Part shown: in pieces, positions 39,455-61,210 of the stretch
Numbering within the stretch: the first letter of the stretch is position 1
Layout of the letters: each line of letters starts with the position of its first letter
Origin: Lytechinus variegatus
Taxonomy: Eukaryota; Echinodermata; Echinoidea; Temnopleuroida; Toxopneustidae
Direction of reading: 5' to 3'
Assembly (NCBI RefSeq): GCF_018143015.1
Contig: NC_054753.1
Span: 26,858,962 to 26,922,961, forward strand
DNA length: 64,000 nucleotides
The notes under the pieces: model-generated
What the model was told of the DNA's origin: nothing
Seen by the model: the letters and a program-made list of their open reading frames with translations, nothing else
The model's database searches: none
Made by a program: the position numbers and the translations under genes

Positions 39455-40400
39455 GATTTACCAGCAATTACTAAACCTACCAGAATTTCTGCCAACTCAT
39501 CCACCAGTCTTATTGATAATGGCATAATTTTCTCCGATCTATCTGATCATTTTTCAATATTCCTCCATTACCAGCTCAATAATGATTTTTCGGCGAACTA
39601 GGTTTATTTTCACATACAACGCGATTTTTCTGAAAACAATATAGAACACTTTATGCAAGAGCTAAAAAACACAGACTGGTCTGGAAACTACACTATAGAA
39701 AATGCAAATGATGCTTTTGAATCATTCATGAGCATAACATCTTCAAAGATGGATCATTGTTTTCCTTTAATTCGAAAAAAAAGATCTAACTACAAAAGGA
39801 TTCCAAGGTCCCCATGGGTCTCCAAGGGTATTTTACGATCCATTAATGGGAAGAATAATCTTTATTTGAAATCAATTGTTAAACCATGTGATAAGAACAA
39901 GAAAAAGTGCAAAGATTACAAGAACATTCTTACTGGTATACTTAGGAGAAGTAAAAAAAAAAAGTATTTTTGTAATCAGTTTCAGTTTCAATTATTCAAA
40001 AATGATATACAAAACACGTGGAAAATAATTAATGTTTTGCATGGTAATTCAAAAAAGTCTTTTGTTTCAAAAATAAATGTCGATGGCGAAATTATAGAAA
40101 ATCCACTTACTTTGGCAAACACTTTTAATGATTATTTTTCCAGTATAGGCCCAAATCTTGCCGGACTCATTCCAGACTCTACAAAACACTTTACTGATTT
40201 TCTTCATGACCCCAACCCAAATTCAATATATTTTTCTCCTACAGATGAGGCTGAAATTGCTGATATAATTCATGGCTTAAAAATAAGCAAAGCTCAGGGC
40301 ATGATGGCATCAGTAACATTTTGTTAAAAAAGAATTGTAATACCATTTTTAAACCCTCGGCATATATCTATAATTTATTAACAATAAATTATTTCAATCT
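39455..40400 (+). mobile_element. LINE (CR1/L2-like) ORF2 remnant: end of endonuclease to start of reverse transcriptase
   Basis: The conceptual protein starts with the end of an APE-type endonuclease (SLIDNGIIFSDLSDHFSIF), meets one stop near 39599, continues through the linker region (39653-40300) and reaches the first reverse transcriptase block. There a one-base loss near 40301 shifts the frame (GHDGISNILLKK in the next frame). The catalytic reverse transcriptase core is absent. The left end is truncated just after an AT microsatellite. Confidence 0.8.
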
Positions 40401-40767: not shown

Positions 40768-43241
40768 ATGTATAAGCTTATACCTTCATTAAGGTGTTCG
40801 GATTGGTATAAATAATAAACCTGGACATTTAAACCCGAATAGCTTTAGGGATAAGCTTATACCTCGTCATGTAGCCAGTATGACATATAAACTCACAAAA
40901 TTGAAACTGGATAATTAGGGTATAAGCTTATACCGCGACATGAAAGCCAGACGGTTTAAGGGATTAGCTTATATCTGTATCATACTCTGCACTGCATGAG
41001 GTAGTACAAATCACCTAAAAGGGATAAGCTAATGTATGAAGTAATACAAATAGAGAAGGATTAGCTTATCACTGTACATTACTCTGTAATGCATGAGGTA
41101 ATACGAATCAAATGGGATAAGCTTAAACCTATATGATACTCTGTAATGTATGAGGTAATACATAGCAAATGGGATAAGCTTATACCTGTAGGGTACTCTG
41201 CGGTATACATGTACGTATTTATACAAATGAAATGGTATAAGCTTATACCTGAATGATACTCTGCAATGCATGAGGCAATACAAATCAAAAGGGATAAGCT
41301 TATACCTGTACGATACTCTGCAATGTACAAGTACATGTAATACATGTCAAATGGGATAAGCTTATACCTGTATGATACTCTGCAATGTACACGTAATACA
41401 TATCAAACGGTATAAGCTTTAATATACCTGAATGATACTCTGCAATGTATGAGGCAATCAAAATCAAATGGGATAAGCTTATACCTGTACGATACTCTGC
41501 AATGTACACGTATTACATATCAAATGGTATAAGCTTATACCTGAATGATACTCTACAATGTATGAGGCAATCCAAATCAAATGGGATAAGCTCATACCTG
41601 TATGATACTCTGCAATGTACACGTAATACATATCAAATGGTATAAGCTTATACCTGAATGATACTCTGCAATGTACAAGTACATGTAATACAAATCAAAT
41701 GGGATAAGCTTATACCTCCTTCTTCTTCTTCTTCTGATAAAGTACAGTCCACCGACTGGTGTATTATACCTGTACGATACTCTGCAATGTACAAGTACAT
41801 GTAATACAAATCAAATGGGATAAGCTTATACCTGTATGATACTCTGCAATGTACAAGTAATACATATCAAATGGGATAAGCTTATACCAGTACGATACTC
41901 TGCAATGTACACGTAATACATATCAAATGGTATAAGCTTATACCTGAATGATACTCTGCAATGTAAGAGGCAATACATATCAAATGGGATAAGCTTATAC
42001 CTGTACGATACTCTGCAATGTACAAGTAATACATATCAAATGGGATAAGCTTATACCTGTATGATACTCTGCAATGTACGAGTAATATAAATCAAATGGG
42101 ATAAGCTTATACCTGTAGGGTACTCTGCAATATACATGTACGTAGTTATACAAATAAAATGGTGTAAGCTTATACCTGAATGATACTCTGCAATGTATTA
42201 GGCAATATAAATCAAAAGGGATAAGCTTATACCAATACGACACTCTGCGATGTACGTGGATAAGCTTATACCTGTAGGATACTCTAGAATGTATGAGGCG
42301 ATACAAATCAAATGGGATAAGCTTATACCTGTACGATACTCTGCAATGTACAAGTAATACATATCAAATGGGATAAGTTTATACCTGTATGATACTCTGT
42401 AATGTATGAGGTAATACATAGCAAATGGGATAAGCTTATACCTGTAGGGTACTCTGCGATATACATGTACGTAGTTATACAAATAAAATGGTATAAGCTT
42501 ATACCTGAATGATACTCTGCAATGTATTAGGCAATACAAATCAAAAGGGATAAGCTTATACCTGTACGATACTCTGCCATGTACACGTAATACATATCAA
42601 ATGGTATAAGCTTATACCTGAATGATACTCTGCAATGTATGAGGCAATCCAAATCAAATGGGATAAGCTTATACCTGTATGATTCTCTGCAATGTACAAG
42701 TAATACATATCAAATGGGATAAGCTTATACCAGTACGATACTCTGCAATGTACACGTAATACATATCAAATGGTATAAGCTTATACCTGAATGATACTCT
42801 GTAATGTATGAGGCGATACAAATCAAAAGGGATAAGCTTATACCAGTACGATACTCTGCAACGTATGAGGTAATATGAATCAAACGGGATAAGCTTATAC
42901 CTGTATGATACTCTGTAATGTACATGTAATACATATCAAATGGTATAAGCTTATACCTGAATGATACTCTGCAATATATGAGGCAATACAAATCAAATGG
43001 GATAAGCTTATCCCTGTACGATACTCTGCATGTACGAGTAATATAAATCAAATGGGATAAGCTTATACCTGTAGGGTACTCTGCGATATACGTAGTTATA
43101 CAAATCAAATGGGATAAGCTTATACCTCTATGATACTCTAGAATGTATGAGGTGATACAGATCAAAAGGGATAAGCTTATACCTGTATGATACTCTACAA
43201 TGTACACGTAATACATACCAAATGGTATAAGCTTATACCAT
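40768..43241 (+). repeat. Palindrome-based minisatellite, ~36-40 units of 56-66 bp
   Basis: Each unit carries GATAAGCTTATACC or the full 16-bp palindrome GGTATAAGCTTATACC, then GATACTCTGCAATGTA and an (A)TACATATCAAATGG-type spacer. Two unit types tend to alternate: GGGATAAG units with TACACGTAATACATAT and GGTATAAG units with TATGAGGCAATACAAAT. Some steps are exactly 56 nt (41991, 42047, 42103). The first 200 bp are degenerate. The long Tyr/Ile/Ser-rich minus-strand frames are an effect of the repeat and not proteins. Confidence 0.95.
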
Positions 43242-43245
43242 TTGA

Positions 43246-44225
43246 AAAAAGGCTATTCGTATTATTTGTCATGCTGATTCTCGTTCACACACTGACGAAC
43301 TTTTCTGTAAATATAATATTTTGAAGATTGGTGACTTGTATCGATACAATCTCGGAAAACTCATGTCTAGTTTAGATAAAAATGAACTTCCAAATGTTTT
43401 TTATTCCATGTTTACTAAAAATGTCGATATTCATCATTATCCTACTAGGTCCACCGGGCTCTTTTATAAACCAAGAGCTAGAACCATCCTCTTGAATAAA
43501 ACATTTATTTTTACAGGTATCAAACTAGGGAAATCCCTCATAGAATCATTACGTAACAAACCAACACATTTAAGTTTCAGTCGAGGGTTAAAGAAAATTC
43601 TTATCCTTGGGTATAAACCCCAGAATTCAAAAATTTCTGTGTCAGCAGCTACCACCTCTTTTGTTCTTCATCCCTTCCTATTTTCTTCTTCTCTTTCCCC
43701 CTCTCCTCTCACATTTCTTTTTTCTCTCTCTCTCTTCCTATCATCTTAATGTCTAGTTCTATTGCTTTTATAATCTTTCTGTCCGTCTATGTTTTGTAGT
43801 GTGTTTTGTTTTGTTTCCTTTTTTTCTGTCTTGTTTTTGTTTGTGTGTGTGTGCCGTTTTTTGTTTTTGTTTTGTTTTTAGTTTTCGTCCTGTCTTGTCC
43901 AAGTGATTGTCTGTTCACACACGTCTGAACTCAGGTTTTTTTTTATTCAGTTGAGGTATGATATAATATTTTTTCTGTAAATTGTAGTGAGTAAACATAA
44001 AAAGCTTGACCCCACTGGTGTTCTTTTTCATTGTTCAAACCTTTTTATTTACGAATTAAGTTTCATTGATCAAATATATACTTTAATTATTACAGGTAAC
44101 CCATACTAACAAGCTTTGCTTTCCAGGGGGTTCCCTTTTTTCATTTATGTATATGATATTCATGTGTTATGCCTTACATTGTAACCTTTGTTAAATTTTG
44201 GAATAAAAAAGAATTTTGGAATAAA
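43246..44225 (+). mobile_element. LINE (CR1/L2-like) ORF2 C-terminus and 3' end
   Basis: The open frame 43246-43749 starts KAIRIICHADSRSHTDELFC, then NILKIGDLYRYNLGKLM, IHHYPTRS and FIFTGIKLGKSLIESL, which fits the conserved tail after the reverse transcriptase of CR1/L2-type LINEs. After the stop comes a 3' UTR with CTTTGCTTTCCAGG and a terminal tandem of GAATTTTGGAATAAAAAA. The same 3' end appears inverted at 23331. Confidence 0.8.
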
Positions 44226-56790: not shown

Positions 56791-56796
56791 CAGAGT

Positions 56797-56962
56797 AATA
56801 CCTCAGTCACATTTCATCTCCGGCGTCCATAAGGCGTGTCGAAAACAACCATTTTAATCATTTATTCAAGCCACCTATAATGTAGCTGGTACAAAAATGC
56901 TTTAAAACGGCTGTTTTCGACTCGCCGTACAGCCGCCATAGGAGAAATGTGACTGAGGTATT
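56797..56962. repeat. P1 palindromic element, copy 4
   Basis: Bounded by TAATACCTCAGTCACATTTC and GAAATGTGACTGAGGTATTA. The inner arms are more diverged (CCGGCGTCCATAAGG). Confidence 0.75.
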
Positions 56963-56989
56963 AGACCGTGGTCTAAGTAACTGAACGGC

Positions 56990-57200
56990 AGAATGTATCA
57001 TTCATTGCAATTCGGATTCACCATCGCCAATTAGTCTACTGGGCAAACCCTTCACTCGAAATAGGGGTCTGAATGTGCAGCCTACTCATGCCTTGTGTAC
57101 TGAAGGCTCTCTCGCTCAGGAACAGCAAGTTTTGTATGTGCTAGTCTTTGCGTGGAGACACGCTTGTTGATCAAAGTTCCAATGAGGGTCTGTGCCTGCA
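56990..57200 (+). repeat. Dispersed repeat, left of the Ser-rich gene
   Basis: GGGTCTGAATGTGCA, CAAGTTTTGTATGTGCTAGT and GTTGATCAAAGT occur in this order and again, reverse-complemented, at 61075-61210. The nature of the repeat is unknown. Confidence 0.6.
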
Positions 57201-58158: not shown

Positions 58159-58687
58159 AATTCATATTCCCGTCACAACCGTACAAACATCAACCAACGA
58201 CATAGGCCCCATACGTTCATTTTAGCGTGTGGAAGATCTTGATCGAATAATCAATAAGGGAGTACTTCAACAACGTACTTCAGATCAAGTCGATGCCTTT
58301 CACCTGACGCGGAACAAAATACACAACCAATCAATATATGTGACGTTTCATTTCAAGATATGACCGAGGATGATTTTAGGAAACGGAATGAGTGGATAAA
58401 GATTTAAAGCTGAAAATTCGCGAGTAGACTTTACACTTTTTTGTTCACATTTTGTCGTTTTCACCATTAAAATTTTGTGAAAATCCTCTTGAACTGAAAA
58501 CATAGGAGCATCAAGATTAGAAGCCTCAGGATAAACTGAGCGAGCCAAGTAAATCAACTCTTTTTTGCGATGGCTTTTTTATACTAAACTGAGTGGAAGT
58601 GGTCTTTTGTGCTTTACTTTAGTGAAATCTGTTCTATTTAAAAGTTTGTTACGATTCTTTAATCTCCATTACGACGGTTAATCGACC
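58159..58687 (+). promoter_or_regulatory. Probable 5' UTR or promoter region of the Ser-rich gene
   Basis: A good acceptor-like sequence (TTTTCTTCTTTTCACAG) ends at 58158, so a 5' UTR exon may begin at 58159 and run into the coding exon. No clear TATA box or initiator was found. The upstream donor, if any, was not located. Confidence 0.3.
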
Positions 58688-60600
58688 ATGAATCCTATAG
58701 AATACGAGCAACATTTACGGTTCATGCAGCTTTACAATGCTGCAGTGGCGACTCAAGAGCAAGACTTGGTGTCCAGGTCCTTACGACGGATGCGACGCCA
58801 TAATTCGTATACACACCTTGGGCCAACCTCGAAGAGTTATCCTCCTCCGGTGAGGCGAGCGGACAGCAGCGGTCAGCTCGAGATCAACCAGAAAGGCATC
58901 AGCAGGACTTCGTCAGAATCAGGGTACAACTCGAACCTCGAACATCGACGTCTGTCCCGTTCTCTGGATCGCGGGCTTACGAAGAGGAGTTCGACCTTGA
59001 GTGATTCAGGTGCCTACGAAGGCTACCCGAGGGTCCGGCGAGTTAGTGTGATCCGGAAAGACTCGGATATCCGTCCACCGACGCCCCCGATTATCAAACG
59101 AAAAGGCTCATCAATCCGAAGTAATGACTCGATGACTCCGAGTGTTAGGTTCTCAACGGTTGAAGATATCATGGCTGCATATGGACACGGTAACTCATGG
59201 AGTGGACGCTACAAACCTAGGCATTCCATCGATCGTGAATCTCATATCACTGCACACTCTATGAAAGAATATGATGATAGACAAGGAAGACGATCATCTT
59301 CGGTGAGTCGTGGCTACGACGATTTCGACGGTGGACGCCGTTCTTCGCGCGAACATCGTAAGAAATCATCTTCTAGTCGGTATGGTAGAAGGCCATCCGT
59401 ACCAGGTCGGAGAGCTTCGGTGTCGAGTCGGCGATCTTCGGTTGCAAGCGGCTCTCGGCGGCCCAGTACAACCAGCCGAGTATCGTACCATGATGAACCT
59501 CGGGTGTCCATCGTTAATCCGAATGGAATCGAAGGTGCCGAGATTATGCGAAGATTGTCGAGGGTTTCGAGCGAACTGAAGGAATGGGAGAGGTCGTTGA
59601 TTATGAGCAGAAGGAACTCATCGCACAGCAGGAGGTCATCCAAGGGTAGCAGGAGACGATCTACGAGTAGCAGAAGAAGGTAGACAAAAATACATGACCA
59701 ACTTTTATTTGAACCCCCCCCCCCCCCCCCATGATAAGTGATTTTCATTATCACACAAATTACTTTACATTTCATTTTAGTAGGGAGAAAAAGGAACAAC
59801 CATTTTAATTTTCAGATTGAAAACACGTGTTCCAAAGGCTTTGTATATTCTTTGTTTTTCCTTATGTGCTATCTGTTGAGCATAATATGTTACAGTAAGA
59901 ATTTGGATAGATAAAAGGCCATAATATTCTATTCCAACGCAACGCATCTCAATGTGATGTTCATTTCTCTATTAAGGTTAAATTTAAAACATCGTGAGAA
60001 AAATCGTGAGTAGACCCTCAAATATAAGATATAAATAAAAATTACTTTCAATAGTAGCATGCGTTCTTCATGCTGAGTAAAATTATGTTGTTTGCACTTT
60101 GTAAGTAAGCCATTGTTTTGTAGTATGTCAACTTTATCAGTTCATTGTTAGGCCTACCAAGATTAAAATGTCAGTTCCATGCACATCATAATATTATCAT
60201 CAAGATTTTTTTTCTTCTTTTCTCCATCCTTTCATTTCGGTTAAGATCGTCGGTCGGAGATTCGACTTCAAGCTCTAGTGATTCCAGTTCTGATTCGGAT
60301 TCAAATTCTGACTCCGATTCCAGTTCATCCGGATCGGGTACTACCGACTCGGATAGTGACAGCAGTTCGAGCTCTGGATCCGGTAGCGAGAGCGACTCAG
60401 AAACGGATAATGGCGACGAAAGAAAATCTTCGAAATCCACGAGTGCGATGCCGAACAATAACGGGAACGGCGGAAATGACGTCGTTGACGGCGGTAGAAC
60501 GGCACAAATAAACGGCGGTATGGCGTTCGCGATGGATGGAGCTGGACATTGGGAGAGAAGCGAACCCAACAACTCCTCAAGTCTTTGTGTGATTCTTTAG
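58688..60600 (+). CDS. Basic/acidic Ser-rich protein with C-terminal CaaX box (2 exons, 448 aa)
   Basis: Exons are 58688-59679 and 60246-60600, joined through donor AAG/GTAGAC and an acceptor preceded by a long pyrimidine tract. The split codon AG/A gives Arg331 and the frame continues to TAG at 60598. An in-frame TAA 9 nt before the ATG supports the start. Residues 1-50 form a helix-like region (EYEQHLRFMQLYNAAVATQ). Residues 50-331 are rich in Ser and Arg with about a dozen RRxS/T sites, which fit basophilic kinases such as PKA. Residues 332-390 alternate Ser with Asp/Glu, resembling CK2 substrates. The tail is Asn/Gly-rich and ends SSSLCVIL, where CVIL fits a CaaX box with terminal Leu (geranylgeranylation). 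The product is thus probably membrane-tethered and phosphorylated. I do not recognise the family. RS-type splicing factors are an alternative, but no RRM domain is present. Confidence 0.82.
59680..60245 (+). other. Coding intron of the Ser-rich gene
   Basis: This 566-nt intron has donor GTAGAC and a polypyrimidine stretch before TTAAG. The donor itself holds an in-frame TAG, so retention would end the protein at residue 331. A C run lies near 59717-59730. No other gene is seen inside. Confidence 0.7.
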
Positions 60601-60902
60601 TAGAAACGGGTGAACCTGTTTTATACTGAATATCCTTTACATTCTGGACTAGGCCAACCCTAACTTGCTCTGCTCGCTAGACCCCTCGCTTAGCTCGGAA
60701 TATAATCGCTAATCCAAGAGCAGCCGCCTGGGCCTCGACAAGAGGCTTGGTTGTTCATTGTCATGGAGGGAATTTGATGACACATTTTATATGTTCTCAA
60801 ATTCGTCGTGCGCTGTGAAAGCGAAAGGTCACTATTGGGATCACGTACAAAATAACGATTGCGTGTCACCATCCTGTCTACGCTCTGAAGCGATCAACAA
60901 TT

Positions 60903-61070
60903 ATACCATGGTCACATTTGCTCTACGGCGGCCGTACGGCGAGTCGGAAACAGTCGTTTTATTCACTTTTATTTTAACCACCGACTTGTAGCTGGTACAA
61001 AAAATTGTTAAAACGGCTGGTTTCGACTCGCCGTACGGCCGCCGTAGAACAAATGTGACCAAGGTATTAG
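60903..61070. repeat. P1 palindromic element, copy 5
   Basis: Bounded by ATACCATGGTCACATTTGC and CAAATGTGACCAAGGTAT. Arms are CTACGGCGGCCGTACGGCGA and its complement. It lies about 300 bp past the stop of the Ser-rich gene. Confidence 0.8.
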
Positions 61071-61074
61071 TGTG

Positions 61075-61210
61075 CGTGCACAAACCCTGGCTTTGATCAA
61101 CAAGTTGGTCTCCACGCGAAGACTAGTACATAGAAAACTTGATGATTCAAATTAGGGTGCACATTCAGACTCTTAACTAGAGTGAAGTGTTTACCCATAG
61201 ACCAACACAT
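61075..61210 (-). repeat. Dispersed repeat, right of the Ser-rich gene
   Basis: Reverse complement of much of 56990-57200: TTGATCAACAAGTTGGTCTC, ACTAGTACATAGAAAACTTG and GTGCACATTCAGACTC. Confidence 0.6.

What the first reader, a model, noticed from the sequence alone, without database searches (positions are those of the whole stretch)
58688..60600. Unrecognised protein: basic RS-like half, acidic SD half, prenyl anchor
The spliced product joins a Ser/Arg domain full of RRxS sites to a Ser/Asp/Glu domain and ends CVIL. Splicing-type RS proteins do not normally end in a CaaX box. A lipid-anchored, phosphorylation-switchable polyampholyte is an unusual design and may be lineage-specific.
Basis: partly seen in the sequence, partly recalled or inferred. 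Interest (0 to 1): 0.7.

Follow-up and report, generated by a model that had tools for sequence, protein, structure and literature searches.

The report
Prenylated protein with PKA-site repeats
An animal gene appears to encode a mostly disordered protein with a lipid-anchor signal at its end and a seven-residue repeat of kinase sites, an arrangement that could let a cellular signal move the protein on and off membranes; this is inferred from sequence and untested in cells.

Summary
The gene is in the sequence as described: ATG 58688, exon 1 to 59679, 566-base intron, exon 2 from 60246, stop 60598-60600, 448 residues ending CVIL. The splice is inferred; its donor (AAG|GTAGAC) is weak. "RS-like" misleads. 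RS/SR dipeptides are at chance level (17 seen, 17.7 expected), with no tandem RS run. What is there is a seven-residue repeat, RRxSxxS: 8 matches against 1.15 expected, 0 of 5000 doublet-preserving shuffles. That is a PKA-type (Kemptide-like) site with a second Ser three residues on. Residues 201-331 carry net +25 and 13 [RK][RK]x[ST] sites, so full phosphorylation would roughly cancel the charge; the SD segment carries -13. CVIL is a GGTase-I substrate in humanized yeast, and the genome encodes GGTase-I beta. Residues 1-216 have no second copy found in the genome; exon 1 has no Pfam or PDB match. Best reading: a natural prenyl-electrostatic switch, working like MARCKS or K-Ras4B and resembling a published synthetic tandem-Kemptide switch (PMC8361095). 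Orthologues, transcripts and localisation could not be tested.

The parts
58688..59679 (+). Exon 1 coding part, residues 1-330 and two bases of codon 331
   Evidence: stop-to-stop ORF 58682-59683; spliced translation; 0 of 2000 shuffles open
58694..58807 (+). Predicted N-terminal helix, residues 3-40
   Evidence: AlphaFold2 single sequence, mean pLDDT of the four 10-residue blocks 81, 89, 82, 74
59288..59679 (+). Basic region, residues 201-331, net +25, with RRxSxxS heptad repeats
59387..59476 (+). First heptad block, residues 234-263 (RRPSVPG RRASVSS RRSSVAS GS RRPSTTS)
   Evidence: units listed; starts at 234, 241, 248, 257
59534..59617 (+). Predicted helix, residues 283-310, amphipathic with 4-3-4-3-4 hydrophobic spacing (I286, L290, V293, L297, W300, L304, read by eye)
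   Evidence: mean pLDDT of the three blocks 281-310: 81, 94, 80; highest hydrophobic moments of the protein
59609..59679 (+). Second heptad block, units at residues 308, 315, 322, 329 in strict 7-residue register; the last unit runs across the splice junction into exon 2
59680..60245 (+). Proposed intron, 566 bases, GC 0.32; weak donor AAG|GTAGAC; acceptor TTAAG is the first AG after the pyrimidine tract
60246..60600 (+). Exon 2 coding part with stop codon
   Evidence: ORF 60124-60600
60247..60414 (+). Acidic Ser/Asp/Glu segment, residues 332-387, net -13, 12 matches to [ST]xx[DE]
   Evidence: for 332-391 the 12 matches stand against 8.1 expected from composition, P 0.02
60415..60585 (+). Hydrophilic tail, residues 388-444, the last 11 forming the linker before the CaaX box
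   Evidence: translation
60586..60597 (+). CaaX box CVIL, residues 445-448
   Evidence: substrate status from PMC11152559 passages

Best explanation
The gene encodes a mostly disordered, geranylgeranylated protein that works as a prenyl-electrostatic switch. GGTase-I modifies Cys445 and tethers the C-terminus to a membrane. With the prenyl group, the net +25 array of RRxSxxS heptads (residues 201-334) binds acidic inner-leaflet lipids. A basophilic kinase of the PKA kind phosphorylates the RRxS serines, and pSxxS then primes the second serine, possibly for CK1 (the CK1 rule is recalled). The array loses its positive charge (13 sites at -2 each against +25) and lets go; the SD segment (net -13, CK2-type sites) sets the balance by competing for the array or repelling the membrane. 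The helices 3-40 and 283-310 would carry or pair with a partner. Shown from sequence: the open frames, the heptad, the charges, the CaaX box in the spliced frame, and GGTase-I beta in the genome. Inferred: splicing, prenylation in vivo, which kinase, the membrane and the function.
For: In residues 201-331, RRxSxxS occurs 8 times against 1.15 expected and the lag-7 self-match is 34 against 17.9, both 0 of 5000 doublet-preserving shuffles; of lags 2-21 only 7 is strongly raised, 14 and 16 weakly (P 0.03, 0.04). RRxS is enriched 10 against 2.1; RRS is raised weakly (5 against 2.1, P 0.04), RRxxS and RRxxxS are not, and RRxxxxS is (8 against 2.0, P 0.0003), which is the heptad's second serine. Units use different codons: 74 of 331 same-residue comparisons (15 units, overlapping ones included) share a codon, 0.22, against 0.19-0.20 at random, so the repeat looks old. 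Charges and site counts. Human GGTase-I fully modifies CVIL in humanized yeast (PMC11152559 passages). Genome exons match GGTase-I beta (E 1.5e-28), FTase beta (3.6e-26) and GGTase-II beta (3.1e-43) in the PDB. A synthetic peptide of tandem Kemptide plus a farnesyl CaaX box moves from plasma membrane to endomembranes on PKA activation, reversibly (PMC8361095: abstract, Results part 1 of 2 and Discussion read).
Against: The splice donor is weak, and no transcript was seen. The array lies over 110 residues from the lipid, with an acidic segment between; in K-Ras4B and the synthetic switch the basic residues sit next to the CaaX box. The synthetic trivalent peptide had localisation defects (also at other places, 'likely nucleus'), so a longer array might go to the nucleus; the synthetic switch also responds to Ca2+. 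The residue before the Cys is Leu and no Lys lies at -1 to -7, whereas PrePS reports that GGT1 substrates favour Ser or Lys at -1 and have more Lys there. One screen found CVIL de-enriched in a Ydj1 thermotolerance assay, though it shifted on gels and supported Rho1-dependent growth. Kinase motifs are consensus only, and the CK2-type enrichment of the SD segment is slight (12 against 8.1, P 0.02). A residual 21-base self-match (137 against 118.9 in synonymous shuffles, P 0.005; third positions 43 against 33.5, P 0.03) points to old DNA duplication, so part of the heptad order may be inherited rather than selected.
Confidence: 0.4

Rival explanations
1. Nuclear-envelope protein: the basic array acts as nuclear targeting and binds nucleic acid, and the prenyl group holds it at the inner nuclear membrane, as for B-type lamins or Drosophila Kugelkern; phosphorylation loosens it in mitosis.
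For: Four clusters of three or more K/R (KRK at 137, RKK at 224, RRR at 322 and 329); the array is highly basic; farnesylated lamina proteins Lamin and Kugelkern are described (abstract beginnings of PMC5973253 and PMC10660854); the trivalent synthetic peptide was also seen elsewhere, likely nucleus.
Against: No SP/TP in residues 201-331, unlike CDK-regulated lamina proteins (recalled), though only 1.5 would be expected; no lamin or other Pfam match; CVIL favours geranylgeranyl, whereas Kugelkern and lamins are farnesylated.
Confidence: 0.2
2. The spliced protein is real but the CaaX box is not used or hardly used; it is a soluble disordered phosphoprotein (scaffold or nucleic-acid binding) and CVIL is a coincidence.
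For: Such an ending follows 3 of 5578 stop codons of the window, this gene's own included, so over a proteome some will occur by chance; Leu at -1 and no lysines in the linker are not ideal.
Against: CVIL is among the four fully shifted of 22 CaaL/I/M-like sequences tested with human GGTase-I; the linker is otherwise small and hydrophilic, as PrePS asks.
Confidence: 0.2
3. The gene model is wrong: exon 1 ends at its own stop (59681-59683) or splices elsewhere, and the SD-CVIL piece belongs to another transcript or isoform.
For: Weak donor and an A at acceptor -3; five neighbouring exon ends use GTAAGT/GTGAGT; stronger GTs exist inside exon 1 at 58849 and 59302; the exon 2 frame alone could be open by chance (16 of 2000).
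Against: The in-frame join; 60246 follows the first AG after the pyrimidine tract; the heptad unit at 329 continues across the junction; the two stronger GTs are phase 0 and do not fit the phase-2 acceptor.
Confidence: 0.15
4. SR-type splicing factor or splicing-associated RS protein.
For: Residues 201-332 are 52% Ser+Arg.
Against: No RRM or other Pfam match; RS/SR dipeptides at chance, no (RS)2 or (SR)2 run.
Confidence: 0.05

Closest known systems
MARCKS (myristoyl-electrostatic switch)
   Same: Lipid-anchored disordered protein with a basic, kinase-targeted segment in the middle of the chain; phosphorylation lowers its charge and weakens membrane binding (PMC7752083 passages)
   Different: Lipid is at the other end and is myristoyl; the effector segment is one Lys/Phe-rich PKC block (recalled), not an RRxSxxS array; no sequence kinship found
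FES-PKA, synthetic tandem-Kemptide farnesyl switch (Kim, Wu, Inoue 2021)
   Same: Tandem RRxS units of the Kemptide kind (LRRASLG, seven residues) plus a CaaX box; PKA decides the membrane (PMC8361095)
   Different: Engineered, 20 residues, basic part adjacent to the CaaX, farnesyl (CVIM); here natural, 448 residues, an acidic segment between array and lipid
K-Ras4B hypervariable region
   Same: Polybasic plus CaaX, phosphorylation shifts location (passages)
   Different: No GTPase domain found here; basic array remote from the Cys
Drosophila Smoothened C-tail
   Same: Arginine clusters and PKA/CK1 phosphorylation; phosphorylation counters autoinhibition imposed by the arginine clusters (PMC4749301 passages)
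   Different: Seven-pass receptor; no prenyl group; analogy of design only
Kugelkern and B-type lamins
   Same: Prenylated proteins of the nuclear lamina (listing and abstract beginnings)
   Different: Farnesyl; no lamin domain or other Pfam family found here

Membership tests
SR protein (splicing) | One or two RRM domains (definition recalled) | tested here: not met
   No Pfam family at E <= 1 for either exon
SR protein (splicing) | RS domain with consecutive RS/SR repeats (definition recalled) | tested here: not met
   17 RS/SR dipeptides against 17.7 expected; 0 tandem runs against 1.13
CaaX-prenylated protein | C-terminal Cys-aliphatic-aliphatic-X accepted by FTase or GGTase-I | tested here: met
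   CVIL in the spliced frame, splice itself inferred; acceptance by human GGTase-I in yeast is from the literature
CaaX-prenylated protein | Flexible hydrophilic linker of about 11 residues | tested here: met
   ERSEPNNSSSL before the Cys, by inspection; -1 Leu is not the preferred residue; PrePS itself was not run
CaaX-prenylated protein | Lipid present on the protein in cells | not testable with these tools
   needs labelling or mass spectrometry
MARCKS family | N-terminal myristoylation signal (Gly at position 2, recalled) | tested here: not met
   protein begins MNPIEYEQ
MARCKS family | Sequence kinship | tested here: not met
   no Pfam match at E <= 1
Ras-type small GTPase | GTPase domain | tested here: not met
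   no Pfam or PDB match for exon 1 at E <= 1
Lamin | Rod and Ig-like tail domains | tested here: not met
   no Pfam match; in exon 1 predicted helices only at 3-40, 158-165, 283-310
Prenyl-electrostatic switch (mechanism) | Phosphorylation moves the protein between membranes or off them | not testable with these tools
   needs live imaging

The most novel reading that the evidence does not exclude
A natural, lineage-restricted protein evolved the same solution that engineers built in 2021: tandem Kemptide-like heptads (seven RRxS units in two in-register runs of three and four, five of them full RRxSxxS) combined with a prenyl anchor. With its own acidic counter-segment it would be a graded, multi-site cAMP-controlled membrane switch in an echinoderm, with a PKA-to-CK1 priming ladder.
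Probability: 0.25. Interest if true: 0.7.

Novelty: new variant of a known kind. Interest (0 to 1): 0.5.

Why it matters
If right, it gives a natural protein whose multisite PKA-type array, charge balance and prenyl anchor can be tested together, and asks how many phosphates it takes to release a lipid-anchored disordered protein. It would also show how a seven-residue kinase-site repeat can begin by 21-base duplication and outlast most of its DNA similarity. If the CaaX or splice fails, it is an ordinary disordered phosphoprotein.

Tried and rejected
Splicing RS protein: rejected on dipeptide counts and lack of an RRM match. DNA microsatellite instead of coding: rejected for exon 1; less likely for exon 2 because all six Ser codons are used. 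Recent tandem duplication: TRF finds no 21-base array, but a weak 21-base trace remains. AKAP and PP1 RVxF motifs (patterns recalled): none found. NCBIfam gave only weak SD-repeat look-alikes for exon 2 (five bacterial surface-protein models, E 0.0022-0.21, far below their cut-offs), taken as composition, and nothing for exon 1. Codon-usage scoring against the neighbouring sulfotransferase-like exons did not separate frames, and in that script the exon 2 frame was set one base off; one search uses the right frame. Viral contigs, residues 1-216: 2 stretches matched a pattern, none a relative. Rfam: 0 matches in the window at gathering scores. DNA downstream of the window: ORFs of 85 aa or more listed and looked at by eye, no family search run on them. 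Exon 2 was not compared with the PDB. Literature: 10 answered searches; no listed title or abstract beginning described a natural prenylated protein with tandem RRxS units, but several listings were capped (10 of 30, 10 of 108, 6 of 214), so this is not proof of absence.

Not done: the genome search with residues 263-331 and with the exon 2 tail was asked for repeatedly and never answered, so lack of a second copy is shown only for residues 1-216. No orthologue search in other animals was possible.

Full report
What is there. The window lies in an 869.6 Mb genome of 33 contigs. An open frame at 58682-59683 on the + strand starts with ATG 58688 just after an in-frame stop. A second open frame, 60124-60600, ends CVIL and a TAG stop. 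Joining 59679 to 60246 keeps the frame and gives 448 residues (where 449 includes the stop). Exon 1 is not a chance frame (0 of 2000 shuffles open). Exon 2 on its own is weaker (16 of 2000), but its serines use all six codons. Much of the rest of the window holds minus-strand exons of a sulfotransferase-like family: of four such ORFs tested, three matched PF19798, two of them above its cut-off.

How good is the splice. The five neighbouring exon ends printed, copies of one exon, have GTAAGT or GTGAGT donors. In favour, 60246 follows the first AG after a long pyrimidine tract, and the repeat unit at residue 329 continues across the junction. I give the spliced model about 0.8.

The basic half is not an RS domain. 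In residues 201-331, RS plus SR dipeptides number 17 against 17.7 expected from composition, and there is no tandem RS or SR run (0 against 1.13). What is enriched is RRxS (10 against 2.1; 10 against 3.7 when doublets are preserved). A serine three residues further on is also enriched, so RRxSxxS occurs 8 times against 1.15 (0 of 5000). The self-match at lag 7 is 34 against 17.9 (0 of 5000). Lags 14 and 16 are weakly raised (P 0.03 and 0.04); the other lags between 2 and 21 are not. In residues 1-200 the lag-7 signal is absent (12 against 13.5). RRxS units stand in two in-register runs, 234/241/248 (with a further unit at 257) and 308/315/322/329. Codons of the units agree about as often as random synonymous choice, yet a 21-base trace remains (P 0.005). 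The repeat therefore probably began as DNA duplication and has been kept as protein; how much is selection is open.

Charge. Residues 201-331 carry net +25 and 13 [RK][RK]x[ST] sites; residues 332-387 carry -13 and 12 [ST]xx[DE] sites. The acidic sites are only slightly above what the composition gives (12 against 8.1 for 332-391, P 0.02). Two charges per phosphate would bring the basic array to about -1. This is arithmetic, not measurement.

Shape. A single-sequence AlphaFold2 model of exon 1 has low overall confidence (mean pLDDT 53.1). It shows more confident helices at 3-40 and 283-310 and a short low-confidence one at 158-165, with 221 of 331 residues under 50. The second helix has hydrophobic residues spaced 4-3-4-3-4 (by eye), as in a coiled coil or a membrane-lying helix. 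The spliced protein and exon 2 were not folded.

The anchor. Passages of PMC11152559 say that CVIL was among the fully shifted sequences (CIIL, CTIL, CVIL, CVLL) of 22 tested with human GGTase-I in yeast. Passages of PMC1175975 say CVIL can also be accepted by FTase in vitro, that a flexible hydrophilic linker of up to 11 residues precedes the Cys, and that GGT1 favours Ser or Lys just before it; here it is Leu. Passages of PMC11304957 report CVIL as the canonical sequence of yeast Rho5, de-enriched in one Ydj1 screen yet gel-shifted and able to support Rho1-dependent growth. The genome encodes exons of the beta subunits of GGTase-I, FTase and GGTase-II.

Relatives. Exon 1 and exon 2 match no Pfam family at E <= 1, and exon 1 matches no PDB chain at E <= 1. 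Residues 1-216 match only their own place in the genome at E <= 0.001 (1 match; 2 candidates scored). Later parts could not be searched. Other animals could not be searched.

Mechanism. The parts are those of a prenyl-electrostatic switch: lipid, basic array, phosphorylation sites. PMC8361095 (abstract, first part of Results, Discussion, found passages) built such a switch from tandem Kemptide and CVIM and showed reversible PKA-dependent movement. The same paper found two Kemptides best, saw localisation defects with three, and found that Ca2+ also acts on the peptide; these cautions apply here. MARCKS (PMC7752083 passages) shows that the basic segment may lie in the middle of the chain, away from the lipid. 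Smoothened (PMC4749301 passages) shows arginine clusters being countered by phosphorylation. None of this shows membership in those families; it supports 'works like'.

Verdict.

Noticed in passing
2802-49580, minus strand: Several tandem copies of a sulfotransferase-like gene; of four exon ORFs tested three match PF19798 (two above its cut-off); the other copies are judged by eye from similar translations.
   Followed up: partly
56791-57180 and 60897-61200: A pair of related elements with internal inverted repeats (62 and 74 bases, 82 and 85% complementary) on either side of the gene, in opposite orientation over part of their length; MITE-like.
   Followed up: no
39602-40327 and 43246-43749: ORFs that look by eye like pieces of a LINE-type element, separated by a repeat-rich stretch at about 41000-43250 whose translations repeat YRYKLIPFDLY; no Pfam match at E <= 0.01.
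   Followed up: no
59714-59730: A 17-base C run inside the intron, a likely spot for sequencing error but outside the coding exons.
   Followed up: no
59302: A stronger donor-like site (TCG|GTGAGT) inside exon 1, out of phase with the 60246 acceptor; possible non-productive or alternative splicing.
   Followed up: partly
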